In this document: in pieces, positions 6,643 through 57,923 of the stretch
Layout of the letters: the number at the start of each line of letters is the position of its first letter
How positions within the stretch are numbered: the first letter of the stretch is position 1
NCBI GenBank assembly: GCA_903871465.1
Contig: CAIQHB010000059.1
Coordinates: 1-57,923, forward strand
DNA length: 57,923 bases
Direction: 5' to 3'
Source: an uncultured Methanosarcinales archaeon
GTDB lineage: Archaea > Halobacteriota > Methanosarcinia > Methanotrichales > Methanotrichaceae
Made by a program: the position numbers and the translations under genes
The notes under the pieces: generated by a model
Told to the model about the DNA's origin: nothing
Database searches by the model: none
Seen by the model: the letters and a program-made list of their open reading frames with translations, nothing else

Positions 6643-6648
6643 AAAACG

Positions 6649-33316: not shown

Positions 33317-33542
33317 AGTATAACGAAGCAAAGTTTGCTTACTTGCAGGTATATACAACCTGCAAGTCATCGGTGGGGAATATATTTTACGACATTATGA
33401 TCATGACGAGATACTAGTGCTGTTCTTGGCAAACCCTCCAAAACAGAGAGCTTCCGCAGAAGGTAAAGAGACGTGAACTTTATACTTGATGAGATAGGTT
33501 AGTTATTTAATTTGGGTCAAATTTGGGCTGGCGGATACATCT

Positions 33543-34988: not shown

Positions 34989-36428
34989 CTACATAGAGTT
35001 ATTACCCACCATTTCGTTCCTATATATGTAATATCTAAGAGTATCATTGTCAGCAGTTCGAATATGTATATCAGTCATCAGTCCGATATCACTTTTCCGC
35101 GTAAGAGTGATCGGGTTATCCTTGTTGTCCATAGTGATGGTGCCGGCTGTGGCATCAACGATCCTTATGGTCATCTTGTCGTATTGGGAATCTGGTGATA
35201 TGGATATAGGATTCTCGGAGATCTGCCATATTCCATCGGCCGTGGCTTGCGCCCACTCTCCGACTTTATTAGCGTTCCTGAAGTGCACTGCTATAGTAAC
35301 AAGGTTATTCTGGGCGCCCACTTTCGGATTTCTGTAATAATAGGTCCTATCAAGCTCGGTAGCACCATCTTTGGATGGTGCCAAGAACGAGCTGTCGACC
35401 ACGTTTCCACCCTTTTGAAGTTCGAGGTACATCATTCCGTCGTCATTCATTCCTTTGAGGACGAGTTCGTACCCTTCTTTGAGCTTAATGGATTCTCCAG
35501 TCTTGACTTTCATATTAGATTTTTCATTCATCAGGATCTTCTCGAGCTGCTCGCTGGATAGCGAATTCTTGTCGGTGGACTCCGCGGAGAAGATGTCGGA
35601 CCCGGACTGTTCATCGACGCCCCAGTTGTATCCGGCAAAATATCCATTGCCCATGAACCCGATCACTCTGTAGCTGCCCCAGAGATCGCGTTCAAATGCC
35701 TTGTTCTGGACGGTTGTGGTGTAAGTAACACCGTAGGGTGCATCGCCACTGAGCTTGTTACCATCGTCCCCGGAGAGAACGAACTTGAGGTTCTCAGTGC
35801 CCAGATCTTTCTTTATATCATAGTAGAACCCTGCGAAGTTCTGAGGATTCCAGGTGAAGGTGTTATCAACCAAGTTGCTCCAACCGTTGATTGTGCCAGC
35901 TACCGATCCTCGAAGTTCATATGTTCCCGGTTCAGTTATATTTTTATATATATAATACCTCAGAGTGTCATTGTCTGCTGTTCTAATGTAAATTCCAGGC
36001 ATGATCTCGATGTTTTTGTTCTTACTGAGGCGGAAGGCGTTGTCTCTGTTGTCCAATGTGATCGTGCCAGTAGTAGAGTCAATAGTGCGAACTCTCAATT
36101 TGCCATATTTCATCCCTAATTGGGCATTCTCGAACGCCTTTATCCGGTTGCTAGCTTCGTAGACTATACCATAAGGAGCATCTCCGCTTAGCTTGTTATT
36201 CTCGGTCAGATTTGTGGTCAACAAGTTTTCATTACCTACATCGTGATCTATGTCATAGTCAAATCCTGCGAAGGTCTGCGCGTTCCATGTGAATGTGTTG
36301 TCCACAAGATTACTTGCGCCGTTCACTGTGCCAGCCACAGCACCTCTGATCTCCAGCGCATGTACCGGAATAGCTATGAACGATATCAACAACAAGATAG
36401 CAAACCAGTTTATATTATATGATCTCAA
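34989..36428 (-). CDS. S-layer-domain protein, shortened
   Basis: 479 residues with signal peptide (LLISFIAIPVHA) and two related S-layer units of the Methanosarcinales type: GAVAGTVNGASNLVDNTFTW and GSVAGTINGWSNLVDNTFTW, each with NKLSGDAPYG and a C-terminal TxxNDTLRYYIY block. The first unit has lost the middle portion that the second unit retains (FMGNGYFAGYNWGVDEQSGS). It also lacks the C-terminal membrane anchor seen in full S-layer proteins. It may be a secreted paralogue or a part of the sheath system. Confidence 0.75.
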   Translation of the reverse strand: MRSYNINWFAILLLISFIAIPVHALEIRGAVAGTVNGASNLVDNTFTWNAQTFAGFDYDIDHDVGNENLLTTNLTENNKLSGDAPYGIVYEASNRIKAFENAQLGMKYGKLRVRTIDSTTGTITLDNRDNAFRLSKNKNIEIMPGIYIRTADNDTLRYYIYKNITEPGTYELRGSVAGTINGWSNLVDNTFTWNPQNFAGFYYDIKKDLGTENLKFVLSGDDGNKLSGDAPYGVTYTTTVQNKAFERDLWGSYRVIGFMGNGYFAGYNWGVDEQSGSDIFSAESTDKNSLSSEQLEKILMNEKSNMKVKTGESIKLKEGYELVLKGMNDDGMMYLELQKGGNVVDSSFLAPSKDGATELDRTYYYRNPKVGAQNNLVTIAVHFRNANKVGEWAQATADGIWQISENPISISPDSQYDKMTIRIVDATAGTITMDNKDNPITLTRKSDIGLMTDIHIRTADNDTLRYYIYRNEMVGNNSM

Positions 36429-36643
36429 ATTAAATCCCTCAATACCACTTACTTGGCTGAAGATATGAAAAGGTTTGTGTAGCTTTGTCTTTTGGTTTGA
36501 TGCGCTAAGTTCTACTCGTGTTTACTCGTGTGTCAGCTATTATATTATATATTATATTTTTCAAAGACAAGAAGGGTAATAAGCTAAAAGATTTATCCAA
36601 CTCTGATGATTGTAGATAACATAATGAACTAGGAGGCGAGTAG

Positions 36644-39097
36644 ATGCGATTAAGTTATGTAAAATTAGGTTTTCTGGCAATAATAGCTGTTTTTTTTCTT
36701 CAGTCGATCACTTTTGCGACAGATCAATCCACTTCATCATGGCCTAGTGTGACAGACCATTTCATTCTACCACCAAATGGGCAAAAAATAAATGCATTTC
36801 ATATGGTTGTAATTGGAGATTCGGTTGCCTGGGGCAACGGATTGAATACAGAGGATAAATACTATCATTTGGTAGCAGATTGGCTTCAAAATAAGTTAAA
36901 TAAACCTGTTGATGTGACAGTTTACGCTCATTCGGGAGCAACAATATCAGGAGAAACTGGTAGATCCATCGATCCAAACCTTAATAGTGGATATCCCACG
37001 TTAATGGATCAGGCAGATAATATTCAAAATGCAGATGATGTAGACCTCATTTTGATATCAGGAGGAATAAATGATGTAGATGTTATGAAAATTATTAACG
37101 TGTACACTCCTGCCGAAGAGATAGACCAACGTGCCCAGTCTATCAAAGATCCTATGAAGAACTTACTCTCATCTCTATTGAGTAAATGTAAAAATACCAA
37201 AATTATTGTGACGAACTATTATCCGATAGTTTCCGAGGACAGCAACATAGACGGAATTGCCGCTCTTTACGGACTAGGAGTATATTTTATTAACGATGTA
37301 ACGAATAAAAATGTTTTGGATGCCGTTACCGTAAAGGAAAGACTAACTGAAAATTCATATATGTTCAATGGCGGCAGCCTAACAGCTTTAACTAATGCAG
37401 TACTAGAAGCAGACAACGGTGCAAAACGCATAACCTTAGCCATGGTAAATTTCCAACCAAACAATTGTTATGCTGCAAGTCAAACATGGTTATGGAAGTT
37501 AGAGGGACTCAAGACCAATGACGATCAATTTGATTATCGTTCTTCATTAACTTCGGATCCAATTAATAAAATTAATGCGATAGGGCATCCGAATAGAGAT
37601 GGTGCAATAGAGTATGCTCGTGCAATAGGATCTACCATAGAATCTAAGGGACTAAGCTGGCTGCAAAATGATGTCACCGTCAGTTCTGGAACTAATGATA
37701 CACAGGAATCCAGCCAACCAGTGTCTTCAACAGCAAGTGCACAATCTACCAACTCACCTCGCATAGCATGGAGAAGAGACTTTGCAGGAGGATACTCGGA
37801 TGCATCCTCCATCCAGCAGACTAGTGATGGGGGGTACATGATCGCTGGAACAGATGGTGGTGACGTTCGCCTCATTAAAACTGATGCGAAAGGCAATGTG
37901 ATTTTGGATAAGAGATTCAAAGGACCTGAAGAATCAGAAACACAGAAGACAGCGGACCAAGCATACTCCATCCAGAAAACGAGCGACGGAGGATACATCA
38001 TTGTTGGCAATACCTGGACTATTAACGGGAATAATGACGCCTGGCTAATCAAGACTGATTCTTCGGGTAACGAAGCTTGGAATAAGACGGTTGAAGGACC
38101 AGGTGATGAATGGGATTCTTCAGGCCAACAAACCAGCGATGGTGGATATATTATCGTTGGCAAGACTAACTCGAATCATGCAAGCAAATTCGATCTCTGG
38201 CTAGCCAAGACCGACTCTAACGGCAACAAACTTTGGGACAAGACATTAAGTGCAGAAGTTAGTGCAGAAGTTAGTAGTTTCCCGTCCATCCAGCAGACGA
38301 AAGATGACGGTTATATAATCGCTAGCACAACCCCAGAGGTCTCGGTTGAATCGGCTGCTAGCCTAATTAAGACAGATATGGAAGGAAATGTGCTATGGAA
38401 CAAAATATTTTCCTACCCAAGACCATCAATAAGTCACTGGGGTGATAGTGCTTCCTCAGTACAGCAGACGAACGACAATGGATACATTATTGTTGGCACG
38501 GCCTCGATTACACGTAAGGACGTAGAGAAGGTAGGGGAAAATAAGTACGATGATGATGTCTGGATAATCAAGACTGATTCTTCGGGTAACGAAGCTTGGA
38601 ATAAGACTTTTGACTCTTTTAGCGGCTCAGAGGATCATGGGGATTCCATCCAGCAGACTAGTGATGGGGGCTATGTTCTAGCTGGACATGCCAGTGCACC
38701 AGGGTCGCGTACTTGGGTGATCAAGACCGATTCTTCAGGGAACATGGAATGGGACAAGAAAATTACCCAAAAAATCGGTAATTCCGATCAAATCAGCGGT
38801 ATTAATCCATCCGCGATCCAGCAGACAAGCGATGGTGGATACATTACCGTTGGCTACAACAATTGGGGTGGTTTTTGGCTAGTCAAAATTGGTGGTAGCG
38901 AAGATGTCACTGGCACAGAGAACAACCAAATCCCCAGAACAGATACACAAAAGCAAGAAGCAAACGCAGAGAACGATTCAGGAAAAACTCAGTCTGGTAC
39001 ACAAGAGGAAGCAACGACAGTTAAGGCATCTGGGTTTGGCGGAATTCTCGCTGTTACAGCGTTACTTTTCAACTACATCTTGTGGAGAAAGGATTGA
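36644..39097 (+). CDS. GDSL/SGNH hydrolase fused to beta-propeller repeats
   Basis: 817 residues: signal peptide (IIAVFFLQSITFA); SGNH hydrolase domain at about 50-330 with Ser in VVIGDSVAWG (Ser60), block III SGGIND (Asn143) and His in GHPNRDGA (about 315); then six to seven repeats of the form QQTSDGGYIIVG...WLIKTDSSGNxxWNKT, as in beta-propellers; a Thr/Gln/Glu-rich spacer; and a C-terminal hydrophobic helix with basic end (GFGGILAVTALLFNYILWRK). It is probably a surface-anchored esterase or deacetylase. ATG follows AGGAGG by 6 bases. Confidence 0.82.
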   Translation: MRLSYVKLGFLAIIAVFFLQSITFATDQSTSSWPSVTDHFILPPNGQKINAFHMVVIGDSVAWGNGLNTEDKYYHLVADWLQNKLNKPVDVTVYAHSGATISGETGRSIDPNLNSGYPTLMDQADNIQNADDVDLILISGGINDVDVMKIINVYTPAEEIDQRAQSIKDPMKNLLSSLLSKCKNTKIIVTNYYPIVSEDSNIDGIAALYGLGVYFINDVTNKNVLDAVTVKERLTENSYMFNGGSLTALTNAVLEADNGAKRITLAMVNFQPNNCYAASQTWLWKLEGLKTNDDQFDYRSSLTSDPINKINAIGHPNRDGAIEYARAIGSTIESKGLSWLQNDVTVSSGTNDTQESSQPVSSTASAQSTNSPRIAWRRDFAGGYSDASSIQQTSDGGYMIAGTDGGDVRLIKTDAKGNVILDKRFKGPEESETQKTADQAYSIQKTSDGGYIIVGNTWTINGNNDAWLIKTDSSGNEAWNKTVEGPGDEWDSSGQQTSDGGYIIVGKTNSNHASKFDLWLAKTDSNGNKLWDKTLSAEVSAEVSSFPSIQQTKDDGYIIASTTPEVSVESAASLIKTDMEGNVLWNKIFSYPRPSISHWGDSASSVQQTNDNGYIIVGTASITRKDVEKVGENKYDDDVWIIKTDSSGNEAWNKTFDSFSGSEDHGDSIQQTSDGGYVLAGHASAPGSRTWVIKTDSSGNMEWDKKITQKIGNSDQISGINPSAIQQTSDGGYITVGYNNWGGFWLVKIGGSEDVTGTENNQIPRTDTQKQEANAENDSGKTQSGTQEEATTVKASGFGGILAVTALLFNYILWRKD

Positions 39098-39149
39098 TAG
39101 AGTCAAATTTGGGGCTTTTTCAATTGGCCCTGCCTCTAATTTCTTTGTT

Positions 39150-39226
39150 GTATGTATAACCTGCGATCCATCCCCACTTTTTTTCCGTTATGCTTTAAAC
39201 GACTAGAAATTATTATAAGGACACAT
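39150..39226 (+). repeat. Dispersed noncoding repeat, copy 1
   Basis: Shares TATGTATAACCTG and, further on, TTTTTC, TTAAAC and TATAAGGA with 40800-40870. Each follows a surface-protein gene (36644 propeller gene here, TPR relic there). Confidence 0.5.
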
Positions 39227-39228
39227 TC

Positions 39229-39376
39229 TGGAGTGAACCCCTCCAAGTGGACAATGAGTTAAGCAACATCAACTCATGGAGGGAAGCATATGGAAAAGCC
39301 GAGGCGGCGCTACGACCGAGCATTCAAGATATCAGTAGTAGCTGAACTTGAGAGTGGCAAACCCCCGCACATATAA
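39229..39376 (+). mobile_element. IS3-type element remnant
   Basis: An end-like sequence (TGGAGTGAACCCCTCCAAGT at 39229-39248) precedes a short frame from ATG 39290, MEKPRRRYDRAFKISVVAEL, which is the usual N-terminus of IS3-family OrfA transposases. It stops after 28 codons. The rest of OrfA, OrfB and the right end are missing. It is a decayed insertion. Confidence 0.7.
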
Positions 39377-39463
39377 GTGGGCTGCTACGCAAACTTTTTC
39401 ATTAGGTATGTCTAAATAAGCGCTCATGGAGGACTGCCTATAAGAGCTAAGTCTATTGTCATT

Positions 39464-40588
39464 TTGATAGCTCTATTAGCATTATGTATGTTTGCTTTTG
39501 GAGCTGAATATACTGCAGCATATTGGTTTCAAAAAGGCAACGAGTTTTATAACAATGGGTATTATGAATTGGCGCTGGATTGCTATAATAAATCTATAGA
39601 GCTTGATCCACTAAATACCTCTACCTTGACCGCCATAGAGAGCGTCAATTTGGGCCTGTCCAAGATTAATAGCTCCCAATTCTATGACAAAGCCATTATG
39701 ATAGATCCTACATCAGCTGGTGCATGGGCCGGTAAAGGCAATATTCTCCAGGAACAGGGCAAATACGACGAAGCCATAAAAGCATACAATAATGCTATTG
39801 CAATCGATCCAAATGATTCTTGTACCTTGTGGGACAAAGGGATGGCTCTTAACAACCAGGGCAAGTTCGATGATGCCATACAGGCTTTTGATAGAGGCAT
39901 CCAAATAGATCCGAAAGATGACGAATTATGGGAGCAGAAAGTATGGGATCTTTATATTATGGGCAGGTATAATGAGTCTATCGCTGTCCTTGATAATGCT
40001 ATCCAGATAGTTCCGGGTGATGCATCATACCTGAACTTTATGAAAGGCACGGTCTTTGAGTCCTCTGGCAGATACAACGAGGAAATTGCTGCTTTAAATG
40101 AATCAAATGGATCTTGGGACTCTGATAAAGGCGATGCATTCTACGGACTAGGCAAATACAGATCTGCTATTGAATCGTACAACAAATCTATTGAGCAGAA
40201 TCAGTCGATTAGCGACAATTGGTATAAAATAGGTCTTTCCCTTCAGGCGCTTGGGCTCAATTCAGATGCCCAAGAAGCATTCACAAAGGCTAAAAGATTG
40301 GGATTGAGTGAGGCAGCGGCGCTTGTCGATAAGGGAAATGCATTGCGCTTATCTGGTAGGTACAACGAATCTATTGAAGCTTATAACAGAGCTATCGATC
40401 TAGATCCCAAATGTGGGGGCTGGTTTAGCAAAATCATATCTCTTAGAGCACTCCACCGTGATGTCGAGACTAATGCGGTTTTTCACCAAATGTTGACGGC
40501 GATTAACCCCATTTCTACAGAAATTTGTTGGCCTAACCTCCCGGGTCACCCCTCCGTTATCATCCCTACAAAATCTTCGCGTGATTGA
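39464..40588 (+). CDS. TPR protein, 3' disrupted
   Basis: 374 codons from TTG 39464. The natural start seems to have been ATA 39440 (GGAGG 9 bases upstream, then IRAKSIVILIALLALCMFAF as signal peptide), so an ATG-to-ATA change may have weakened it. About eight TPR units follow. After VETNAVFHQMLTA the sequence leaves the TPR pattern for about 30 residues, ends at TGA (40586-40588), and TPR repeats resume in the same frame downstream. The product is probably truncated. It is a paralogue of the gene at 33543. Confidence 0.6.
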   Translation: MIALLALCMFAFGAEYTAAYWFQKGNEFYNNGYYELALDCYNKSIELDPLNTSTLTAIESVNLGLSKINSSQFYDKAIMIDPTSAGAWAGKGNILQEQGKYDEAIKAYNNAIAIDPNDSCTLWDKGMALNNQGKFDDAIQAFDRGIQIDPKDDELWEQKVWDLYIMGRYNESIAVLDNAIQIVPGDASYLNFMKGTVFESSGRYNEEIAALNESNGSWDSDKGDAFYGLGKYRSAIESYNKSIEQNQSISDNWYKIGLSLQALGLNSDAQEAFTKAKRLGLSEAAALVDKGNALRLSGRYNESIEAYNRAIDLDPKCGGWFSKIISLRALHRDVETNAVFHQMLTAINPISTEICWPNLPGHPSVIIPTKSSRD

Positions 40589-40800
40589 GTTAATGAAGCT
40601 ATTACGCTCTATAACCAGGCCAAATACAATGAGTCCATTCAAGCATTTGACAATGCCATCCAGATCTATCCATGCAATGGAAACGCTTGGTACTGGAATG
40701 CCTTAGCCCTCAAGTTGCTTAATCGCACTACGGAAGCCGATGACGCTTTTGCCAAGGCCAAGGAGCTAGGTATACTGGCCGAATCCCATCGGTTAGCAGT
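40589..40800 (+). pseudogene. TPR relic continuing after in-frame TGA
   Basis: In the same frame as the gene before it, the sequence codes VNEAITLYNQAKYNESIQAF, then AWYWNALALKLLNRTTEADD, two further TPR units. No ribosome-binding site or start precedes them. This is the tail of the interrupted TPR gene. Confidence 0.65.
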
Positions 40801-41358
40801 ATGTATAACCTGTAAATCAATTCCTCTTTTTTCGGTATCTATTAAACCGCAAGACATTTTTATAAGGATACTTTCCGGCTCAAACTCCATGCCCTTGCGC
40901 TCCAAGTTTCACATTTTCGAAATCGATATCACTAAAATCAATTGACCAATATCAGCAACCACTCAAGGAAACTTGATTGCGATTCTCATAGTGACCAGAA
41001 TGGGTAGTTGGTCCAAAACGCTTTTTGGGTTGTTGGGAAGATCTGCGAAGATAATATGGATAACTTGAGGTTAGTTTTAAGGAGGGAGGCAAAAGTCTTG
41101 AGGGGAAAATAGGAGGAGGAAAGAAATAAGAGTTTCGACTTTTGCCGGATACTATATAGTCAATTGCCGAGATATATAGTTTTCGATTTAGGCAAGACAA
41201 AGAAGGAATAGATTCTGAGGCAGCCCTGTAAGAGGCCAGAGTGCCGAAGGCGAGGTTGTGATAAATCAAGTTGCAAATCAGGTTCTAACCTAAAAAATAT
41301 TAGACACTTCCGTGCAGCTTAATCGTCTATATATTTCTTGGAAAGTACATTGTTGGCT
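40800..41358. other. Noncoding region with dispersed repeats
   Basis: Holds copy 2 of the TATGTATAACCTG repeat (40800-40870) and a MITE-like element (41078-41187). An open frame over 40715-40945 in this area has no family features beyond the TPR relic. Confidence 0.5.
41078..41187. repeat. MITE-like element, copy 1
   Basis: Starts TAAGGAGGGAGGCAAAAGTC and ends ATATATAGTTTTCGAT. It contains the 10-bp perfect inverted arms GGCAAAAGTC (41088-41097) and GACTTTTGCC (41137-41146). A 101-base relative lies at 45992-46092. It has no coding capacity. Confidence 0.65.
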
Positions 41359-41631
41359 ATGAGATGGGTGAGCGCGATAATAACAGCCTGCATAATAATG
41401 GTCTCCTTAAACACAGCATCTGCTCTGGGAGGAGACATCTCAGAACTGAAGAAACTTATCTCAACCAATGAAGATACACGCACGAATTCCCAAGACCTAG
41501 CGTTCTTTCTCGCCACCCATAACTACAACGCTGAACCCGAGGACAGTTATGTAGAGCTCAATCTCAACGACAAGATTTACAAACTCATCCCAAATGGCGA
41601 TAAACCAGGGCTATGTGATATAATGTCTTAA
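41359..41631 (+). CDS. Small secreted protein, 90 aa
   Basis: 90 residues from ATG 41359; the in-frame ATG at 41338 is less fitting because the signal peptide starts at MRWVSAIITACIIMVSLNTA (cleavage near SALG). The mature part is acidic with a sequence ELKKLISTNEDTRTNSQDLA and ends in KPGLCDIMS. No family recognised. It is likely exported or surface-bound. Confidence 0.55.
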   Translation: MRWVSAIITACIIMVSLNTASALGGDISELKKLISTNEDTRTNSQDLAFFLATHNYNAEPEDSYVELNLNDKIYKLIPNGDKPGLCDIMS

Positions 41632-41783
41632 CTATGTGGTGGGAGTAATAATGCGATCAAAAATAAGGTCCAACGACATGGTCAAAACTCAGATTCTAAA
41701 AGCATGTAATCAGCAAGACAATTATGTAAGACTTCTATAACATAGCACCATAAAGATATTTATATGTTGAGCATATATCTCTG

Positions 41784-42953
41784 ATGGATACATTAGCAAT
41801 GAAGGGGATTATTATGCCTAAGGGTCGAAGGTTCGTCTTGCCATTAGTTATTTTGATAGCTCTCAGCTCTGCCTTTTTCTGGAACGCCTACGGTAAGACC
41901 ACTACCGAGCAGCATCTGTTCGTAGAACCGGACGCTGGAAATAAGCCCGTCCTGGACGCACTAAACAATTCAAAACAATCTATCTGGATGGAGATTTATT
42001 TGCTCTCTGATAAAGGCGTCCTCCAGGCTCTTAAGGATGCCAGATCCCGAGGAGTCGACGTTCGAATACTGCTAGAGGAGCATCCGTTTGGAGGTTCAGG
42101 CAGCATTAAAGCCGTCCTTGATGAACTCAACAGGTCTAACATCTCTGTCAGACCGAGCAGCCCTGCCTTCCGCCTCACACATGAAAAGGGCATAGTGATC
42201 GATCAAAAGACAGCCTTGATCATGACCCTCAACCAGGATTTTTCGGCATTTAACAGTAATCGAGAGTTCGGCATAATCGATACTGACCCGGAGGACGTGT
42301 CAGAAGTGGCAAAGGTATTCGAAGACGATTGGGACCGAACCACTCCAAATCTAACCGATTCTAGGCTTGTCTGGAGCCCCGTCAACTCACGCCAGCGCAT
42401 TCTTGGCTTGATAGACAGCGCCAAGCATACTCTTAGAATAGAGAACGAGGAGATGCAGGACAACCAAACGGAGGACCACTTGATAGCAGCCGCCTCAAAG
42501 GGTGTTGATGTCGAGGTCGTTATGTCACCGGGACAAACCGGAAAAGATGCCAACGCACCAGGGCTAAAGAAGATCGAAGTTGGCGGAGTAAAAGTCAATC
42601 TGGTTAAATCTCCCTATATCCACGCTAAAATCATAGTGGCAGATAATTCAACCGCTTTCGTAGGCTCTGAGAACTTCTCTCCTACATCCCTGGATCGTAA
42701 CAGAGAGCTTGGAGTATTGACTCAGGACCCAGGGGTAATCAGCCAATTAACTACCAGCTTCAAAAAGGACTGGAACGAATACAAAGGGGTTAAACAGATC
42801 TCCACACAGACTACGAACCATAAATCTGTAGAGACAACGACGAATCATCGCCTTTTGTCTCAATCAAGACTACGCCATCTCCCCCAGAAGAACAAGCCTA
42901 AAAAACCAAATAAACTTCTGCCTTTATGGTCTTGGCTGCAAGCTGGCAGCTAA
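41784..42953 (+). CDS. Exported phospholipase D-family protein
   Basis: 389 residues; ATG 41784 or 41814 (MPKGRRF). A signal/anchor segment (LPLVILIALSSAFFW) precedes two HKD motifs: THEKGIVID (His133, Lys135, Asp140) and HAKIIVAD (His280, Lys282, Asp287). In PLD-superfamily enzymes the two motifs make one active site for phosphodiester bonds; substrates may be lipid or nucleic acid. The second motif is followed by GSENFSPTSLDRNRELG, typical of the Nuc-like subgroup. The C-terminal about 60 residues are Gln/Thr/Lys-rich. Confidence 0.85.
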   Translation: MDTLAMKGIIMPKGRRFVLPLVILIALSSAFFWNAYGKTTTEQHLFVEPDAGNKPVLDALNNSKQSIWMEIYLLSDKGVLQALKDARSRGVDVRILLEEHPFGGSGSIKAVLDELNRSNISVRPSSPAFRLTHEKGIVIDQKTALIMTLNQDFSAFNSNREFGIIDTDPEDVSEVAKVFEDDWDRTTPNLTDSRLVWSPVNSRQRILGLIDSAKHTLRIENEEMQDNQTEDHLIAAASKGVDVEVVMSPGQTGKDANAPGLKKIEVGGVKVNLVKSPYIHAKIIVADNSTAFVGSENFSPTSLDRNRELGVLTQDPGVISQLTTSFKKDWNEYKGVKQISTQTTNHKSVETTTNHRLLSQSRLRHLPQKNKPKKPNKLLPLWSWLQAGS

Positions 42954-43120
42954 CTTTTGCCAGAAAACATAACCAAGAACCATTTTTACAAATAGAAAGT
43001 ACGATTAAGATACAAGTATGAAATAGTCCTGCGAATGCTCAGAAACCATCCAAGGCCCAAGAGTTACATGTAGAAACTGATACTATTTATTCTACCTCTG
43101 ACATTAGTGCGATCGAGGAA

Positions 43121-44596
43121 ATGGAAATGGGAAAAAAAACGCTTTTCGCTTTAGTGGCAATGGCTGCTTTTTGCGTGACAGCCCTGGCGCAGACGATGCC
43201 AATACAAATTTTTGAGAATTCTCAATCAGCTCCTTTGTGGAAACAAGATGGAGATGCCTTCAGCTCTCAGGGTCAATTTGAGGACGCGATAAAGTGCTAC
43301 GATACCGCCCTTCAGATGGCGCCTTCGGACGCAGAAATATTGACTGGAAAAGGCTTCGCTCTCTGTGACCTGGGTAAGTTCAACGAGTCGTTGAAATGCA
43401 TGGACAGAGCTATTGAGCTGGGCCCCAGGAAGCAAGCCGCCTGGAACAACAAGGGGACTGTTTTCGATGCCATGGGGAACTATGAAGAGGCCTTAAAGTG
43501 TCGCGAGATAGCTCTGAAGATAGATCCTGGTTACATAATGGGCTGGCTCAATAACGGCAGCACCCTTGCAACGATGGGCAGGTATGATGAAGCATTAAAG
43601 AGCTACGATGAGGCCGCCAGGCTAGACCCGAATTCTGAGGATGCATGGTACAACCGAGCGGTCGTACTGGGTAATATGAGCCGATTCGAGGAAGCGGTGC
43701 AGAGCAGCGATAGGGCTCTCGAGCTGAACCCTCGGGATGCTGAAGCCTGGTCGAACAAAGCCCGATTCTTAATTGCTCTTGAGAGATACGAATAAAGCAT
43801 CCAGGCCTGTGACAAAGCTTTGGAGATAGATCCAAATTATGCTATGGCTTGGTCTAACAAAGGCAACGCCCTCTGTGGTCTTGGTAAGTATGACGAGGGT
43901 GTAAAGTGCTGTGAGAAGGCCATCGAGCTCTCTCCAGGAATTGGCCCAGCCTGGTCTGGCAAAGGAGTAGGACTGATCGGCCTGGGCCGGTACCAAGAGG
44001 CACTGGATGCCCTTGACAAGGCTACTGAGGTAGATCCAAACTGTGACATGAGTTGGCTCAACAGGGGTGTAGCTCTAAAGAATCTGGGTCGAAGTGAAGA
44101 GGCTCTTGCATCCTATGACCGCGCAATGGAACTTGATCCAGGATTGGCTGCAACCGCCTGGAGCAACAAGGCCAACGTCTTCTATGGCCAACGAAAGTAT
44201 GACGAGGCCATTTCTAGTATGGACAAAGCCATTGAACTTGATTCTAATAGCTCAGATCTCTGGTATGGCAAGGGCGAAATATTGGCAGACGCTGGTAAAA
44301 ACGAGGAGGCTCTGAAGTGCTATGATAAAGCCTTAGAGCTAAACCCAGGGCAAGCGATGGCCTGGAGTGGCAAGGCTTACGTGCTTTGTAACCTCAAAAG
44401 ATATGATGAAGCTCTGCAGGCAGTTGGAAAAGCTATTGAACTTGATCCTCAGAATGCAGGCCTGTGGAATAACAAGAGCTTGGTTTTAGAGGCTCTGGGA
44501 AGAAAAGATGAGGCCAACGAATGTCACAATAAGACCATCGAACTTGGTCTTGAATCAGAAGAGGGAGACCGGCTTTTGTCCGTGGTTGGACAATAG
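43121..44596 (+). pseudogene. TPR protein gene interrupted by a nonsense codon
   Basis: A signal peptide (FALVAMAAFCVTALAQT) and about six TPR units are followed by an in-frame TAA at 43793-43795, directly after RFLIALERYE. The frame continues without shift with SIQACDKALEIDPNYAMAWS and eight further TPR units to a stop at 44596. The expected residue at the stop is Glu (ERYEESI in the repeat pattern), so a single G-to-T change explains it. TAA is not a pyrrolysine codon. A truncated N-terminal product of 224 residues might still be made. Confidence 0.8.
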
Positions 44597-48119: not shown

Positions 48120-48237
48120 TACTTTCGGCCCAGAGCGGTAGGCTTTTTGTGGAATAAGAATCCAATTTTTAAAAGTTATTTGCATTACTGAAAACACTTA
48201 TCTATGCGCAATTATATCCTGAGTGGAGGAAAGTAAA

Positions 48238-50802
48238 TTGGTATCTGGGATATCCGAGGGAGAACTTAGCTTCGACTCTTTCTTTAGGGGAGCAACGGGA
48301 CAGGAAGTGGGATATACACCCTATCCATTTCAAAGGAGATTTGCGACCTCGGAAAGTCTCCCTGAGCTAATCGATATCCCTACGGGCATGGGCAAGACTG
48401 ATGCCGTAATTCTGGGATGGTTATGGCGCAGGCGCTTCGATCCTCGGCCCGCGATCCGGGCGGCTACGCCGAGGCGGCTGGTCTACTGCCTGCCCATGCG
48501 GGTTCTAGTGGAGCAGACACAGGACAAGGCCGAGATGTGGCTGAAGAACCTGGGCCTCTTTTCAGAAAAGCCATGCGACAGCGAGCCTGTGGAGACTAGC
48601 AGAGGGAGCAAGTGGACTGAAAAAGCGGGCCAAGATAAAACTCGTATCGCCGTCACGGTGCTCATGGGAGGCGAATGCAAGGATGAATGGGATCTTTGCC
48701 CGGAGAGGGACGCCATCATCATCGGCACGCAGGACATGTTGCTCTCGAGGGCTCTCAATCGAGGCTACGGCATGAGCCGGTTCAAGTGGCCGATACACTT
48801 CGGTCTGCTTAATAACGACTGCCTATGGGTGATGGACGAGGTGCAGCTAATGGGCGTAGGCGTAGAGACGTCTGCGCAAATGCAAGCGTTTTGCAAGTCT
48901 TTTGGAACCATAAATACTGTTCAGTACATCTGGATGAGCGCCACTGTGGGAGACAAGCAGCTTGACACCGTGGACCATCCTCAACCCTCGGGCGGATGGC
49001 AGAAGCTGTCACTAGAGTCGGATGAAAAGGGGCTCACAGAGGTGCGAAAAAAGTTTGAGGCTCCAAAATCTTTGAAGAAAGCCAATCTGACGCTCTTCAA
49101 GGACAATGAAAAGAAATCCTATGCCAAGGAGCTGGCTGGTTTAATTAAATCGAAACATAGGAATGGAACGCTTACTCTCGTCGTAGTCAATCGCGTTGAT
49201 CGCGCTCAAGATATCTACAAAGAGCTTCTTGAGCAAGGTCGCACTGAAAAAGACGCGACTGTCCTTCATTCTCGTTTCCGGGAAGGGGATCGAAAGGCAC
49301 GAATGCGGCTTCTCGATGAGAAACATGACCGCATTATTGTAGCTACTCAGGTCGTTGAGGCTGGCGTGGATATTTCGGCTCACACACTCATCACCGAGCT
49401 TGCTCCTTGGCCCTCTCTTGTTCAGAGATTTGGGCGATGTAACCGGAGAGGCGAGTATAATGATGCAGAGATTGTATGGATTGATATCGATTCCGGCGAG
49501 GAAGCAAGCGGTCTTGTGCTGCCTTACGAATCTGAATCCCTTGAGATAGCCAGGAGTTTAATCAAGACCATTACGGATGCAGGGCCGATGTCATTGGCTC
49601 AAGCCTCCCTGAGCTATATTGAACCGGATGTCATCAGGGCCGTCGTGCGTAGGAAGGATTTCATTGACCTTTTCGATACCACACCCGACCTTACAGGAAA
49701 TGACCTGGATGTCTCCCGTTTCATTCGGGAAGGAGAGGATAAGGATGTTCAGGTCTTCTGGAGAGATTTTCCAAAAGATAGACCTGCTGGATCGCTTGAT
49801 CCGGCCAGGCGGGAAGAGCTTTGTTCGGTGTCCATCAGCATGATGAAAGAATACCTAAAGAAGCACGTCAGCTGGATTTGGGATCCTCTGGAAGAGCGCT
49901 GGAAGGGAGTTGGAGAAAAGGGCGAGGTAAAGAGCTGTCGTCCTGGGCAGGTATTGCTGCTGCATCCGGAAAATGGCGGTTATTCGCCCACCTTAGGGTG
50001 GACTGGCGAAGATGACAAAAACGGCACTTTGGTCGAGGTCATTTCTGCAAAAAACAAATGTCAAAACAGGGATGATCTGTCAATGAACGGAGATCAGCGA
50101 TCCAGGATCGGCAGTTGGGTTACACTCAAGGATCATATCGATCATGTTCGCAATGAGGTGCTGTGTCTATCTGAATGCCTTGACCTTCCTCAAAATTACG
50201 AAAATGCGCTTCAGAATGCAGCTTTTTGGCACGATGTTGGGAAAGCGCACCCCGCCTTCCAGAACATGCTCCTGGCTGGCAAATCCGATGGGGAAAGCTG
50301 GAGGGCTGGCGGACCATGGGCAAAGTCAAAAGGCAATAACGGTAGAGCAAGATACTGGGTCGAATCGAACGATGGCAGAGTAATTGAAAGACCCTACTTC
50401 CGGCATGAGCTGGTTTCGGCCCTAGCCTGGCTGCAAACGCAGGAACGGAATGGAAAGGATGTGGACCTGGTAGCTTATTTGATTGCAGCCCATCATGGCA
50501 AGATTCGAATGTCGATACGATCTCTTGATCAAGAATATCGGCCAACAGATCCCAACCGGCTTTTTGCCAGAGGGGTATGGGATGGTGATCGTCTGGCACA
50601 TGTAAACGGTATCCTAGAAGAGGATATTCTCTTAAATCTCTCGATCATGCAAATGGGCGAAGGAAGCTGGTTGGAAAGGATGACTGGACTTAGAGATAAT
50701 TCCTGGATTGGTCCGTTTAGGCTGACATTATTGGAGAGCGTTCTCCGTATTGCCGATTGGAGAGCCTCAAGGATGGAAGAGGCTGAAACGGTGGTCCGAT
50801 GA
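48238..50802 (+). CDS. cas3: Cas3 helicase-nuclease of type I-G
   Basis: 854 residues from TTG 48238, which follows GGAGG (48225-48229) by 8 bases; GTG 48223 is the alternative. Superfamily 2 helicase motifs: I DIPTGMGKT, II MDEVQLM, III SAT, VI QRFGRCNRRGE, with TQVVEAGVDIS. The HD nuclease follows at the C-terminus (FWHDVGKAHPAFQ at about 665, HELVSALAWL, AAHHGKIR). The helicase-then-HD order marks type I-G/I-U, opposite to most type I Cas3. It degrades target DNA after Cascade binding. The last 4 bases overlap csx17. Confidence 0.92.
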   Translation: MVSGISEGELSFDSFFRGATGQEVGYTPYPFQRRFATSESLPELIDIPTGMGKTDAVILGWLWRRRFDPRPAIRAATPRRLVYCLPMRVLVEQTQDKAEMWLKNLGLFSEKPCDSEPVETSRGSKWTEKAGQDKTRIAVTVLMGGECKDEWDLCPERDAIIIGTQDMLLSRALNRGYGMSRFKWPIHFGLLNNDCLWVMDEVQLMGVGVETSAQMQAFCKSFGTINTVQYIWMSATVGDKQLDTVDHPQPSGGWQKLSLESDEKGLTEVRKKFEAPKSLKKANLTLFKDNEKKSYAKELAGLIKSKHRNGTLTLVVVNRVDRAQDIYKELLEQGRTEKDATVLHSRFREGDRKARMRLLDEKHDRIIVATQVVEAGVDISAHTLITELAPWPSLVQRFGRCNRRGEYNDAEIVWIDIDSGEEASGLVLPYESESLEIARSLIKTITDAGPMSLAQASLSYIEPDVIRAVVRRKDFIDLFDTTPDLTGNDLDVSRFIREGEDKDVQVFWRDFPKDRPAGSLDPARREELCSVSISMMKEYLKKHVSWIWDPLEERWKGVGEKGEVKSCRPGQVLLLHPENGGYSPTLGWTGEDDKNGTLVEVISAKNKCQNRDDLSMNGDQRSRIGSWVTLKDHIDHVRNEVLCLSECLDLPQNYENALQNAAFWHDVGKAHPAFQNMLLAGKSDGESWRAGGPWAKSKGNNGRARYWVESNDGRVIERPYFRHELVSALAWLQTQERNGKDVDLVAYLIAAHHGKIRMSIRSLDQEYRPTDPNRLFARGVWDGDRLAHVNGILEEDILLNLSIMQMGEGSWLERMTGLRDNSWIGPFRLTLLESVLRIADWRASRMEEAETVVR

Positions 50803-53027
50803 ATGCTGAATCAAACGTCCTGGATCTCAAAGGCTGTGCACCTGTACCGCTCGCCCACTACCTAAAGGCGTTGGGGATCTTCAGGATTCTAGCCGAACAG
50901 GTTGAACCGGGTGCCAAAAGCTACTGGATAGGCGATTCTTTCCGGCTTAAAACTACAATAGATAGCGAATCTCTGAGAACATTCTTTTTGGAAAAATACA
51001 GTCCGACGCCGATCGTGGCTCCTTGGAATGGAGGCAGCGGATTTTACTTTCAGGAAGAGAAGCTCAAGGAAAAAGACCCTCTGACAGGAAAACGAAAGAA
51101 GACAGGACGCAGGATTCAGCCGACAGCGGCAACGAAAGCTGTGCAAGATATTCTGGATTCAACTACTGAGAGGCTTTCAGGTTATAGCGAGTCCCTCCGG
51201 ATCATCAAGAACCTGATCGAAAAGATGGGACTAGAAGAAGCGCCGTCTAAGGAGAAAAAAGAGGAGCTTATCCTGGCAGTTAGAAATAATCTTCCGGATT
51301 CATCAATCGACTGGCTTGATGCATCCGTGATTTTGACAACTGAAAATGCAAGATTTCCTCCGCTCCTCGGTACAGGTGGAAACGACGGAAATTTGGATTT
51401 TAGCAGTAATTTCATGCAACGTCTCAAAGATGTCTTCGAATTTAGTGGTGGAAATCCGATGAGTTCCTCTGAGGCATGGCTTGATGGGGCGCTGTTTGCA
51501 GAAAACTCTGACGGCTTGGTCAGCGGAATTTCTATTGGTCAATTTTATCCAGGTGCTGTAGGCGGTCCCAATTCCGCACCGGGATTTGTCTCGGACTCGC
51601 CGGTAAATCCCTGGGATTACCTACTAATGATTGAAGGCGCATTATTTTTCGCATCTGCTACAGTCAAGCGGCTGCAAGCAAATATGCCTGGGGTTCTCAG
51701 TTATCCATTCAGCGTTCGCCTCTCGGGTGTAGGATACGGCAGCGCTTCTGAGAGTGATGAGAAAAGCGCAAGAGCAGAGATCTGGATGCCCTTCTGGGAG
51801 AAGCCCACGGGATTATCTGAACTGAAGGCCCTCATGAGTGAAGGGCGTGCTCAGGTGGGAACCAGGCCGGCCAGAAATGGAGTAGATTTTGCCAGGGCAG
51901 TTGCCTCTCTCGGAGTAGATAGAGGGCTAAAATCGTTCCAAAGATACGGTTTTCTGGAAAGAAATGGTCGCAACTTCTTTTCAGTTCCCCTTGAGCGGAT
52001 CGTGGTAAGCCGCCAGATCCAGGTGGAGTTATTGAACGAGGTGGATAGCTGGCTGGATTCATTCCACGAAAAAGCTCGATCAGAGAAAGCGCCTGCATCT
52101 GTTGGACGCGCTCTGCACGTTCTCGAATCGTCCATTTTGGCTCTCTGCAAAGAGAGCAGCAATGATCAGGTCCAAACATGGCGTGTGCAGAATGTATTGA
52201 TCGCCCTCGGAGGGTGCGAAAAAGTCATCGTCCGAAGCTCTCGCTGGGCAAAAGAGGCTTTCGTTAAGCCGGTAAATCCTCTTTCAAAAAATTGGCTTAT
52301 CATGGCAGATGATCAATCCCCGGAATTTTTCCTGGCGGCAAGTCTAGCTTCTACCTTTGGCCATTACAAAGACCAGAAGGATCGCGATTTTACCATGTGG
52401 CTGCGCTCCCAAATGGAGCCCATCAATCACTGGAATGCTAGTTTATTTGATGATACTTTGGGAAGAGACGTCGTCTGGTCTGAGAGAGATCCCATCTCAG
52501 TAATGAACGATATAATTTCACGCCGAATCACGATGGCGGTTCGCTCCGGAGCAAATGGCTATCCAGATGATGCAAAAATTAAAGCAGATCTTGAGGATAT
52601 TGCTGCATTTATAGAAGATCGGGTCAATTTAAGCCGAATGATGGATCTTCTCTGGGGTTTGATTTTAGTAGACTGGCCTTCTGTATCCAGGAATTTTATA
52701 AAAAGACAATTCGAATCAGATAACATATTCCCGTCTGCCAGCTATGGTCTTCTCAAGCTCTGCCTTGCAGGCGGGCCTGTATGCGATATAGAGGTTCCTC
52801 TCGTGCCCCAAATACACAGGATAGCCTCCATTGGCGATGGTTTTGGTTCGTTGCAGTTAGCTGAGAGACGTTTAAGAGGCAGCAATCTCCCTGTTGCTAA
52901 GATTAGTAGCAATATTTCGTCTAATTTAATGAAACGAATTGCAGCAGCACTGCTATTTTCCATTAATGAAAGTCAGATCGAGCATTTAGCAAGCAGTGTT
53001 CTAAGGCCGAGAGTCGTCCAGGAATAA
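50799..53027 (+). CDS. csx17: Csx17-type large subunit (Cas8-like)
   Basis: 742 residues starting with the family hallmark LDLKGCAPVPLAHYLKALGI, followed by YWIGDSFRLKT and a Gly-rich FYFQEEKLKEKDPL. It is the putative large subunit (Cas8u2) of type I-G effector complexes, thought to help recognise the protospacer-adjacent motif. It overlaps cas3 by 4 bases (ATGA) and precedes csb1 by 34 bases to its ATG. No obvious disruption is present. Confidence 0.85.
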   Translation: MNAESNVLDLKGCAPVPLAHYLKALGIFRILAEQVEPGAKSYWIGDSFRLKTTIDSESLRTFFLEKYSPTPIVAPWNGGSGFYFQEEKLKEKDPLTGKRKKTGRRIQPTAATKAVQDILDSTTERLSGYSESLRIIKNLIEKMGLEEAPSKEKKEELILAVRNNLPDSSIDWLDASVILTTENARFPPLLGTGGNDGNLDFSSNFMQRLKDVFEFSGGNPMSSSEAWLDGALFAENSDGLVSGISIGQFYPGAVGGPNSAPGFVSDSPVNPWDYLLMIEGALFFASATVKRLQANMPGVLSYPFSVRLSGVGYGSASESDEKSARAEIWMPFWEKPTGLSELKALMSEGRAQVGTRPARNGVDFARAVASLGVDRGLKSFQRYGFLERNGRNFFSVPLERIVVSRQIQVELLNEVDSWLDSFHEKARSEKAPASVGRALHVLESSILALCKESSNDQVQTWRVQNVLIALGGCEKVIVRSSRWAKEAFVKPVNPLSKNWLIMADDQSPEFFLAASLASTFGHYKDQKDRDFTMWLRSQMEPINHWNASLFDDTLGRDVVWSERDPISVMNDIISRRITMAVRSGANGYPDDAKIKADLEDIAAFIEDRVNLSRMMDLLWGLILVDWPSVSRNFIKRQFESDNIFPSASYGLLKLCLAGGPVCDIEVPLVPQIHRIASIGDGFGSLQLAERRLRGSNLPVAKISSNISSNLMKRIAAALLFSINESQIEHLASSVLRPRVVQE

Positions 53028-53037
53028 AAGTTGATAA

Positions 53038-54009
<972 letters not shown>

Positions 54010-54013
54010 TGGT

Positions 54014-55636
54014 ATGCTCGCCATCGAGATGAGGTTCCCTGCCGGAAAATATCACGCCACACCTTGGAACCGTCAGGTTAATGAAGGCGCAGTGGAGTGG
54101 CCGCCGTCGCCCTGGCGAATACAAAGAGCCCTAATTTCAACCTGGTACCACAAGTTGGTGGCAGAGATAGATGAGAATACAATCCGCAGAATTATCGAGA
54201 AGCTGAGCGCCACCCCACAGTTTTCCCTTCCTCAAGCCTCTTTGGGACATACCAGGCACTACATGCCACTTTACCGGGAGGCCACTACGATGGTTATCGA
54301 TACTTTTGCTGCGATTGACAGCGAAAGCCGACTTATTATTGTATGGCCACAGGTCGATCTCTCCAGCGAAGAAAATTCAGCTCTCTTGATGCTAATCGAC
54401 CGAATGGGATACCTAGGGAGAGCAGAGTCATGGGTTGAAGCCAGATTGGCAGAAGACTCTTCGGATCAGGTCAACTGCATTCCTTTGCAGGAGGGCGCAG
54501 TTCTGCCAGAGGGATTTGAAAGTGTTCAAACTCTCGTTGCAATGACTCCGCAAGAATATTTGAGATGGAGGGAGACAAAACTTGAAGCGCGAAAATCTCG
54601 AAAGCTTGCCGAGTTGCATGATACGGCTAAGACCAATGGAAAATCAGATGATACGGCAAAGCTGAAGAAAAAGGACCTTGAAAAGATAGAGCAAAGCCTT
54701 CCTATTGATCTTTTCAGTGCGCTTCATGCTGACACCGGCGATCTCAAAAAAGCAGGATGGAGCCAACCACCTGGAAGCGTCTGGGTCTTGTACAATAGGC
54801 CAAGAAGCTCATTTGAGGTGGCGCCCCGAGCAGGAAAAAGGGCATATTCTAGAAAGAAGCCAACCGTAGCTCGCTTTGCCGTGGCCAGCCAGGTATTACC
54901 AAGGCTTACAGATGCAATCAGTTTTGCCGAGAGAATTCATATGGCTCTGGTCAGCCGCTCCAATGGTTCATCTTTGTTTACCGGTTGCGACGAATCAGGC
55001 AACCCCCTCGAAGGACACGGGCATGCATTCATTCTGTGTGAATCCAGCTTGGGCTTAGGCAAAGGCATGAGAGGAGAGATTACTCACGTAGTCATTCACG
55101 CTCCTAGGGGATTCCAGCTGCAGGATCGGCAAGCACTAGACAGCCTAACTCGTGTCTGGGGCCATGGAGGACATGATGTTCAGCTTATTCTCCTCGGAGT
55201 CGGTCAACCGGAGGACTTCGCCGGACTGGATACGGCCAAGGGAGCCTGTCCTATTCTGGCAAAGTCTCAAAGCTGGGTCTCCAGGACGCCTTTTGTATCT
55301 ACCAGACATCCCAAGGCCACGAAGACAGGAGTTCCCAAGGTTGATGGGAATGGTTTACAGATCGGAAGTCCGGAACATGAACTTAGAAGGCTGCTAATGC
55401 TCGCGGGATTTCTTTCGCCATCTTCCGTCGAAGCCGTTCCTTCCACAGATCTGGCGGGCCATGAGACAAGGTGGCTTAGCTTTAGGCGGCAGAGGAATCA
55501 AGGGAACGGAAGGAAAGTTGCCAGCGGGCTAGGCTATGGATTTCGCATTAAATTTCCAGACGTGGTCAGTGGTCCCATCGCTATCGGCTACGGTGCTCAC
55601 TTCGGCCTGGGCCTCTTCGTCCCCGAATCGACTTGA
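54014..55636 (+). CDS. csb2: Csb2 (fused Cas5-Cas6 subunit)
   Basis: 540 residues with the hallmark N-terminus MRFPAGKYHATPWNRQVNEG, followed by WPPSPWRIQRALISTW, and a C-terminal RAMP-type Gly-rich loop (GPIAIGYGAHFGLGLF). Csb2 (GSU0054 family) combines Cas5 and Cas6 roles: crRNA processing and 5'-handle capping in type I-G. His residues in GLGYGFRI and GHETRWL regions may serve catalysis, but I cannot assign which. It is the last gene of the four-gene operon, followed by the CRISPR leader. Confidence 0.88.
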   Translation: MLAIEMRFPAGKYHATPWNRQVNEGAVEWPPSPWRIQRALISTWYHKLVAEIDENTIRRIIEKLSATPQFSLPQASLGHTRHYMPLYREATTMVIDTFAAIDSESRLIIVWPQVDLSSEENSALLMLIDRMGYLGRAESWVEARLAEDSSDQVNCIPLQEGAVLPEGFESVQTLVAMTPQEYLRWRETKLEARKSRKLAELHDTAKTNGKSDDTAKLKKKDLEKIEQSLPIDLFSALHADTGDLKKAGWSQPPGSVWVLYNRPRSSFEVAPRAGKRAYSRKKPTVARFAVASQVLPRLTDAISFAERIHMALVSRSNGSSLFTGCDESGNPLEGHGHAFILCESSLGLGKGMRGEITHVVIHAPRGFQLQDRQALDSLTRVWGHGGHDVQLILLGVGQPEDFAGLDTAKGACPILAKSQSWVSRTPFVSTRHPKATKTGVPKVDGNGLQIGSPEHELRRLLMLAGFLSPSSVEAVPSTDLAGHETRWLSFRRQRNQGNGRKVASGLGYGFRIKFPDVVSGPIAIGYGAHFGLGLFVPEST

Positions 55637-55988
55637 TCCGCCACATCTCTCTTGCAGTCGACAGCTCAGATGCCACACCCCTACCGTCTGGGAACGCCGA
55701 CCGGCCGAATGGGCTCTTTCAAAGCGCGATTCTTTTTTTTGCAGCTGAGGTCCCCCTTCGTTCCAGGCACCGAAAACTCCTGCAATTTAAGCGAAAGATA
55801 AATTAATAGAGAGAGGTCTTTGCGAGAGGTTAGGTGGTTCCGGGAGGACCGGGGTGCGCTCGAAACACCTCTAAATAGCGAAAACTCCCGTGAAGACAGA
55901 CGCAGTTTGAAAAGATACTACGTTAGTTGGTGAGCCTCTCGAAAACGGCCAATTTTTCGATATCTACAGAGGGCGAAAAATGGCCGCC
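55637..55988 (+). promoter_or_regulatory. Leader region of the CRISPR array
   Basis: 352 noncoding bases between csb2 and the first repeat. The last 43 hold an inverted repeat, CGGCCAATTTTTCG (55946-55959) and CGAAAAATGGCCG (55974-55986), with one bulged base, ending two bases before repeat 1. The direction (repeats ending ATTGAAGC on the plus strand) suggests transcription left to right. There is a poly-T run at about 55732-55739, possibly the operon terminator. Confidence 0.5.
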
Positions 55989-56241
55989 ATTTCCACGGTT
56001 GGAAAGTCGTGGCCCCATTGAAGCATATTATTAAAATGACGATACCAAGAGAGATGCGGTAATTTCCACGGCTAAAAAGTCGTGGCCCCATTGAAGCTAA
56101 ACATAGTGGTAATGACGAGGCTTATGCCATATTATTTCCACGGCTAAAAAGTCGTGGCCCCATTGAAGCTGGACCACAATCAGATCACAGAAAGGCAGAG
56201 GCGGTATTTCTACGGCTGGAAAGTCGTGGCCCCATTGAAGC
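55989..56241 (+). CRISPR. Short CRISPR array, 4 repeats and 3 spacers
   Basis: 36-base repeats at 55989-56024, 56062-56097, 56134-56169 and 56206-56241, separated by spacers of 37, 36 and 36 bases. Repeats 2 and 3 are identical; 1 and 4 differ at a few positions but keep the dyad CCACGG...CCGTGG-like stem (8 bp including G-T pairs) and the shared end CGTGGCCCCATTGAAGC. It lies downstream of the type I-G operon. Orientation is inferred from the ATTGAAGC end. I saw no obvious match of the spacers within the window, but did not search exhaustively. Confidence 0.95.
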
Positions 56242-56361
56242 TGTCGCCAGGGAGGACGCGCTGGCCCGCTCTCGCCTTATTTCATAGCAGAAAATCTAAT
56301 CCAATTGTATTATTGACGCGAGTGCAGGCATACTTGTTTTAGAATTTTAGATATTATATAA

Positions 56362-56586
56362 ATAATAGATATCCTTATTGTTAAATCGAAGAAGAGAGTG
56401 CCTATCCCCTTTGATGACGCCCTGGTGAGCAGAACCAAGAACCTCATCGCGGCGCTCAGAACCACGGCGGAGCGAGGAAAGATGCCGCCCCCCCTGGAGC
56501 ATAGCCCTAAATGCTTCCGATGCTCTTTGGCCGGCTCTTCAGAGATTCGTGAATTTTTGTTAAAAGCTGGCGAATATAGGCATTGA
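56362..56586 (+). pseudogene. cas4: Cas4 C-terminal remnant
   Basis: The frame (start lost, open from ATA 56362; GTG 56398 is the first usual start) reads VKSKKRVPIPFDDALVSRTK, then GKMPPPLEHSPKCFRCSLAG. This is the conserved C-terminus of Cas4, including the two-Cys motif CxxC that binds the iron-sulphur cluster. The N-terminal nuclease is missing, and after SLAG the usual CLPDE is replaced by unrelated sequence ending at TGA 56584-56586. In type I-G systems Cas4 is often fused to Cas1, so this may be the relic of a deleted cas4-cas1 gene. Confidence 0.75.
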
Positions 56587-56690
56587 GTAAATCCGAAGGA
56601 GTGCGAAATAATTTCAGGCCCACACGTTCGAAGAAAATAAAGAAAAGTATATAAACCGGGCATGATATCTGAGTGTGAGGTGTCGGGATT

Positions 56691-57358: not shown

Positions 57359-57923
57359 TTGTCCAAATTTCTGCTGATTTCGTTGTTGCTCATGACCGTC
57401 TATAGCCCTTTAGCATTCGGTCAGATTTTGCCGAATGGATCTGATTTTGCCAGTTTAACAGGAAACTATTCCGACGGGGGCATTGACATCAATCGGGATG
57501 GAAAGTTCGAATATCTGAATGTTGACGTTGGTGTTCACATAGAATATCCTGGAGAATATAGCCTCAATGGATATCTATACGACCGCAATAACAAAGAAGT
57601 AATCTGGTCTGTGGATCACAGAAACTTTACTTATGGAGATCATACAATGCAGCTTGCCTTTGATGGCAAGACCATACAGAAGCGAGGGCTGAACGGACCG
57701 TATCGACTGGGTAATCTCTCCTTCACCTGGGGTTCGGCGACCACGGGGCTGATTCCGTGTGCGAGGCTCGATGATGCCTATGAGACAGGTTTCTACAACT
57801 CCAGCGATTTTGTAGATCCGGTTAGCAAAGACAAGATCCTCTCGGGATCTGGAAAAGGTGAGGTGCTCTTGACCCTGTCCATAGAAACCATTGTACCCAC
57901 ATTTTCTGGGAGATACATGTACG
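57359..57923 (+). CDS. Secreted protein, 3' part beyond window
   Basis: TTG at 57359 follows AAGGAG with an 8-base gap. The frame is open to the window end (188 codons). A signal peptide (MSKFLLISLLLMTVYSPLAF) is followed by a beta-rich domain with a Ca-type loop (DINRDGKFEYLNVDVGV). A second similar element cannot be excluded beyond the edge. It is likely an exported surface protein; no name can be given. It lies 59 bases after the previous secreted-protein gene, same direction. Confidence 0.6.
   Translation, partial: MSKFLLISLLLMTVYSPLAFGQILPNGSDFASLTGNYSDGGIDINRDGKFEYLNVDVGVHIEYPGEYSLNGYLYDRNNKEVIWSVDHRNFTYGDHTMQLAFDGKTIQKRGLNGPYRLGNLSFTWGSATTGLIPCARLDDAYETGFYNSSDFVDPVSKDKILSGSGKGEVLLTLSIETIVPTFSGRYMY

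What the first reader, a model, noticed from the sequence alone, without database searches (positions are those of the whole stretch)
56362..56586. Cas4 stub: the adaptation module of this type I-G locus seems to have been deleted
Downstream of the array a decayed reading frame retains the Cas4 C-terminus (PFDDAL..., GKMPPPLE, SPKCFRCSLAG) but no nuclease residues and no cas1 or cas2 in the 1.7 kb that follow. The locus may rely on adaptation proteins in trans or be frozen in its spacer content.
Basis: partly seen in the sequence, partly recalled or inferred. Interest (0 to 1): 0.72.

Follow-up and report, generated by a model that had tools for sequence, protein, structure and literature searches.

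The report
CRISPR locus that lost spacer-capture genes
In this methane-producing archaeon a CRISPR defence locus keeps its attack genes and a tiny memory array, but two clean deletions have removed all of its memory-writing genes except a 157-base scrap; the array shows signs of no longer gaining memories, which is a tidy example of a known kind of decay.

Summary
The observation and the reading both hold, with corrections. Window 56378-56535 encodes residues 136-187 of a Cas4g-Cas1g fusion (NCBIfam NF049935, E=5e-12, 45 bits against a 560-bit cut-off). It lies downstream of a 4-repeat array beside an intact type I-G effector operon (cas3g, cas8g, cas7g, csb2). Two Methanothrix relatives carry the intact locus in the order effector - leader - array - cas4/1 - cas2, so the scrap sits where cas4/1 should start. 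The gene was not eroded by point mutations; it was cut at two junctions. J1 (56377/56378) joins the cas4/1 upstream region to codon ~136 and removes ~460 bp, including the Cas4 nuclease motifs. J2 (56535/56536) removes the third C-terminal cysteine, all of Cas1 and cas2 (at least 1.44 kb). The genome still has two intact cas4g-cas1g/cas2 sets, both beside type III genes and from a different clade, with related but distinct repeats. Trans adaptation is therefore possible, but the window's first and second repeats differ by 3 nt; in 13 leader-bearing intact arrays they are identical. That favours a dormant array. A well-resolved new example of a known kind.

The parts
48223..50802 (+). cas3g helicase-nuclease, intact (859 aa)
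   Evidence: TIGR02621 797 bits, cut-off 400; Walker A, DEVQ, SAT, HD motifs present; dN/dS 0.18 against G021
50799..53027 (+). cas8g/csx17, type I-G signature, intact (742 aa)
   Evidence: TIGR04113 673.5 bits, cut-off 150; dN/dS 0.14 against G021
53041..54009 (+). cas7g/csb1, intact (322 aa)
   Evidence: TIGR02570 E=3.4e-36, PF09617 E=3.8e-44
54014..55636 (+). csb2 (Cas5-Cas6 fusion), intact (540 aa)
   Evidence: TIGR02165 E=1.3e-52 full length
55820..55988 (+). leader; the last 54 nt are identical to the leader of G001 (upstream limit approximate)
   Evidence: 54/54 identity; 78% identity over 55691-56241 including repeats
55989..56024 (+). R1, leader-proximal repeat, 3 nt different from R2
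   Evidence: weaker hairpin, -7.2 kcal/mol against -11.5
56025..56061 (+). spacer 1 (37 nt), no target found
56062..56097 (+). R2
56098..56133 (+). spacer 2 (36 nt), no target found
56134..56169 (+). R3
56170..56205 (+). spacer 3 (36 nt), no target found
56206..56241 (+). R4, terminal repeat, 3 nt different from R2/R3
56330..56377 (+). retained cas4/1 upstream region (38/48 to G012; AT-rich, TATA-like)
   Evidence: left side of junction J1
56378..56535 (+). the scrap: cas4g-cas1g codons ~136-187 (52 aa)
   Evidence: NF049935 E=5.4e-12; 88% DNA identity to G012, 82-84% to G001/G020/G021
56536..56587 (-). unrelated sequence right of junction J2: start, antisense, of an ORF also seen in G009
   Evidence: 87% over 52 bp to G009:C80:8168-8219

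Best explanation
A type I-G CRISPR locus of the layout effector - leader - array - cas4/1 - cas2 lost its adaptation module by deletion, leaving a 157-bp island of cas4/1. One deletion runs from the cas4/1 upstream region to codon ~136 and removes the Fe-S N-terminal Cys and all RecB-type nuclease motifs. The other runs from codon 187 through Cas1 and cas2 into a neighbouring gene. Short (micro)homologies at both joints suggest replication slippage or end joining (inferred). The effector genes remain intact and under purifying selection, so the three existing spacers can probably still be used for defence (inferred). New spacers are most likely not being added: the array is dormant (inferred from repeat divergence). 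The genome's two other Cas4-Cas1/Cas2 sets serve their own arrays (inferred).
For: Scrap profile hits. Intact syntenic loci in G001 and G020 with the same repeat, and array-before-cas4/1 order in six clade A loci. The scrap is closest to clade A cas4/1: 45/52 to G012 and 36-42/52 to the others, against 30/52 and 33/52 for the host's own C81 and C10 copies. Junctions with matched flanks on both sides: J1 removes 459-465 bp by comparison with G012/G001; J2 shows shared GGCCGG. Cas4 catalytic and most Cys positions lie outside the retained segment (alignment; the Cas4 active-site residue used experimentally is E101 in M. barkeri Cas4/1, PMC10504553). No cas1/cas2 on C59 or C54. R1 differs from R2 by 3 nt; 13 of 13 leader-bearing intact arrays of at least 4 repeats have R1=R2. 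Effector dN/dS 0.11-0.18.
Against: The leader's last 54 nt are fully conserved, which could mean it is still used, though the divergence time may be short. R1 differing from R2 could in principle come from recombination among diverged repeats. No strain of the same species was available to test spacer turnover. The scrap carries few changes of its own (3 synonymous, 2 non-synonymous among polarised sites), so it cannot show relaxed selection by itself. Reads were not available to confirm the joints.
Confidence: 0.85

Rival explanations
1. The deletion is real, but the array is still fed in trans by the C10 or C81 Cas4g-Cas1g/Cas2 complex, which recognises the related leader and repeat.
For: Two intact cas4g-cas1g/cas2 sets in the genome. 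The C10 variant repeat GTCTCCATGACTGAAAAGTCGTGGCCCAATTGAAAC is close to the window repeat. The leaders share a TTTTTCGATATC...AGG block. Trans adaptation across types was shown in Flavobacterium (PMC8092290).
Against: R1 differs from R2 by 3 nt and only 3 spacers remain, whereas arrays with local adaptation genes have R1=R2. The host's copies belong to another Cas4/1 clade with arrays on the other side of the genes.
Confidence: 0.15
2. Assembly or binning error: the joints are chimeric and the true locus is intact.
For: The scrap lies 1.3 kb from a contig end in an 81-contig assembly; contigs often break at arrays.
Against: The joints are inside the contig. No other clade A cas4/1 fragment exists in the assembly. 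Separate matched segments in the expected order would have to be joined by chance. Estimated completeness is 99.6%.
Confidence: 0.05
3. The 62-aa frame is a functional small protein, for example a regulator that binds Cas1-Cas2.
For: The frame is open; an AT-rich TATA-like stretch from the cas4/1 upstream region is retained; pN/pS 0.24 against G012.
Against: No other listed match among 61 genomes shows this form (the list was cut short); the C-terminal 17 codons are unrelated sequence; half of the Fe-S Cys are missing; the low pN/pS mostly predates the deletion.
Confidence: 0.03
4. The locus never had its own module; the scrap arrived separately by recombination from another cas4/1 locus.
For: The scrap's closest relative, G012, carries a different I-G effector variant.
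Against: The scrap lies after the array, behind the cas4/1-type upstream region, exactly where G001 and G020 have the gene.
Confidence: 0.04

Closest known systems
Type I-G CRISPR-Cas (formerly I-U) with Cas4/1 fusion, for example Methanosarcina barkeri and Geobacter sulfurreducens (PMC10504553)
   Same: Same effector genes and the same Cas4-Cas1 fusion family; Cas2 beside it in intact relatives
   Different: Here the fusion is cut to 52 residues and cas2 is gone; in this Methanothrix lineage the array lies before cas4/1, whereas most other I-G loci fetched have it after cas2
CRISPR loci without adaptation genes that acquire in trans (Flavobacterium VI-B with II-C, Sulfolobus III-B; PMC8092290)
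   Same: Effector and array without cas1/cas2, with other adaptation genes in the genome
   Different: No evidence of acquisition here; the first repeat has diverged
Arrays with substituted repeats that rarely gain spacers (as noted for type VII loci, PMC12669027)
   Same: No adaptation module and repeats with substitutions
   Different: Here the loss is secondary and its joints can be read

Membership tests
Cas4g-Cas1g fusion (NF049935) | full-length match above curated cut-off (560 bits) | tested here: not met
   45 bits over positions 143-187: a remnant, not a member
Cas4g-Cas1g fusion (NF049935) | Cas4 nuclease motifs and four Fe-S cysteines | tested here: not met
   only two of the four Cys lie in the retained segment; the D, D/E-x-K and Q motif region is upstream of J1
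Cas4g-Cas1g fusion (NF049935) | Cas1 integrase domain | tested here: not met
   no Cas1 hit on C59
Type I-G CRISPR-Cas | cas8g, cas7g, csb2 and cas3g effector genes | tested here: met
   all four above NCBIfam cut-offs
Type I-G CRISPR-Cas | array with leader and lineage-typical repeat | tested here: met
   4 repeats, leader, repeat as in G001/G020
Type I-G CRISPR-Cas | own adaptation module cas4/1-cas2 | tested here: not met
   only the 52-codon scrap
Locus with trans adaptation | adaptation genes elsewhere in the genome | tested here: met
   C81 and C10 sets intact; compatibility itself untested
Locus with trans adaptation | evidence of continued spacer gain | tested here: inconclusive
   R1 differs from R2 by 3 nt argues against; no strain comparison available

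The most novel reading that the evidence does not exclude
After losing its own module, the I-G array is maintained by Cas4g-Cas1g/Cas2 hubs that are physically part of type III loci in the same cell, so that several effector types in Methanothrix share I-G-type adaptation and I-G-like repeats.
Probability: 0.15. Interest if true: 0.5.

Novelty: new member of a known kind. Interest (0 to 1): 0.3.

Why it matters
Loss of adaptation modules is usually inferred from absence. Here the joints, the remnant and the intact relatives are all readable, so the loss is shown directly, and the first-repeat test gives an independent sign of dormancy. The genome, with one orphaned I-G array and two intact Cas4/1 sets, is a natural setting to test how strictly Cas4/1-Cas2 recognises leader and repeat.

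Tried and rejected
Pfam gave nothing for the scrap; NCBIfam and PADLOC did. I first suspected that the deletion lay between csb2 and the leader, because in C81 and in most other I-G loci the leader follows cas2; rejected when G001, G020 and four further clade A loci showed array before cas4/1. A tree including the scrap was not possible (too few columns), so placement rests on identity. Spacer targets: none for 5'-end 22-23-mers in IMG/VR, and none within 3 mismatches in 51 genomes apart from the array itself. Selection on the scrap: too few polarised changes to test. Contigs of the closest relative, G021 (88% Cas8g), break in csb2 and at the start of cas4/1, so it gave no direct view of the joints.

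Full report
What is in the sequence. The window is the whole of contig C59 of an 81-contig, 3.13-Mb archaeal genome. The named closest relatives are Methanothrix/Methanosaeta (L075, L079, L080).

The scrap. The frame matches NF049935 (Cas4g/Cas1g) at positions 143-187 with E=5.4e-12; a genome scan extends this to 136-187 at 56380-56535. DNA comparison with intact genes gives sharp ends: 56378-56535 is 88% identical to G012, 84% to G001 and 82% to G020 and G021. The alignment shows that the Cas4 N-terminal Cys, the nuclease motif region and the third C-terminal Cys lie outside it. The last 17 codons, SSEIREFLLKAGEYRH and the stop, come from unrelated DNA: 56536-56587 is 87% identical, over 52 bp, to the antisense start of an ORF in G009.

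Intact relatives. In G001 (L033) and G020 (L035) the order is cas3g-cas8g-cas7g-csb2, leader, array with repeat ATTTCCACGGCTGAAAAGTCGTGGCCCCATTGAAGC, cas4/1, cas2. Six loci (clade A) share array-before-cas4/1; G012 and G013 carry it beside other I-G effector variants. The host's own cas4/1 genes on C81 and C10 fall in another clade with arrays after cas2 and repeats ending ATTGAAAC. The scrap is closest to clade A (36-45 of 52 residues, against 30 and 33 for C81 and C10).

The joints. The region 56330-56377 aligns to the stretch before cas4/1 (38/48 to G012), and at 56378 the sequence jumps to codon ~136, removing 459 bp by comparison with G012 or 465 bp with G001. The two sides in G001 read CTTTATTAA and CTTTGTTAA, an imperfect short homology. 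At J2 the cas4/1 side (GGCCGGC) and the G009-like side (GGCCGGT) share GGCCGG; at least 1134 bp to the cas4/1 stop and 1443 bp to the cas2 stop are gone by comparison with G001. No cas1 or cas2 is found on C59, or on C54, whose start overlaps the C59 end by 106 bp.

Dormant or fed in trans. The genome has four cas1-cas2 sites, two of them intact Cas4g-Cas1g plus Cas2 (C81, C10), near type III genes. Their leaders share a block with the window leader and their repeats are related, and trans adaptation between types is proven elsewhere (PMC8092290), so it is possible here. Each acquisition copies the first repeat (established knowledge), so in an active array R1 equals R2. That holds in all 13 leader-bearing comparison arrays of four or more repeats; a two-repeat array in G019 differs by one. 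The window's R1 and R2 differ by three and R1 folds less well. I therefore favour a dormant array. The effector genes are under purifying selection against G021 (dN/dS 0.11-0.18), so defence with the old spacers is probably still in use (inferred).

Novelty. Loci without adaptation modules are well known, as are substituted repeats in arrays that rarely gain spacers (PMC12669027). This case is a new, unusually readable example, not a new kind of system.

Noticed in passing
L005:6646-7434 (G000:C81); L064:4243-5082 (G002:C56); L066:15567-16370 (G020:C28): Stand-alone genes of 262-279 aa that match only the C-terminal Cas6-like half of Csb2 (TIGR02165 positions ~250-487), in C81 directly before a type III-B Cmr operon and in G002 before type III-like genes. 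The Csb2 C-terminal domain is the crRNA-processing nuclease (PMC9638904), so these may be I-G-derived Cas6 genes serving type III loci.
   Followed up: partly
L005 (C81), L006 (C10), L067, L069: Cas4g-Cas1g fusions and Cas2 sit beside type III (Cmr) operons rather than I-G effectors in several Methanothrix genomes, with arrays of I-G-like repeats.
   Followed up: partly
L061:854-1318 (G013:C18): An N-terminal cas3g fragment (63% identical to the window's Cas3g residues 11-94) directly precedes a different I-G effector variant, which looks like an effector swap beside a retained array-cas4/1-cas2 module.
   Followed up: partly
L006:2939-6272 (G000:C10): The array switches repeat type: 36 leader-side repeats CAATCCATGTCTGAAAAGACGTGGCCCAATTGAAAC, then 10 leader-distal GTCTCCATGACTGAAAAGTCGTGGCCCAATTGAAAC; the paired stem positions change together.
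   Followed up: no
window 57818-57923: The contig end is identical to C54:1-106 over 106 bp, so C54 is the likely next contig.
   Followed up: partly
window 5437-8073, 33086-44596: Many TPR-like repeats and beta-propeller-like repeats in large genes.
   Followed up: no
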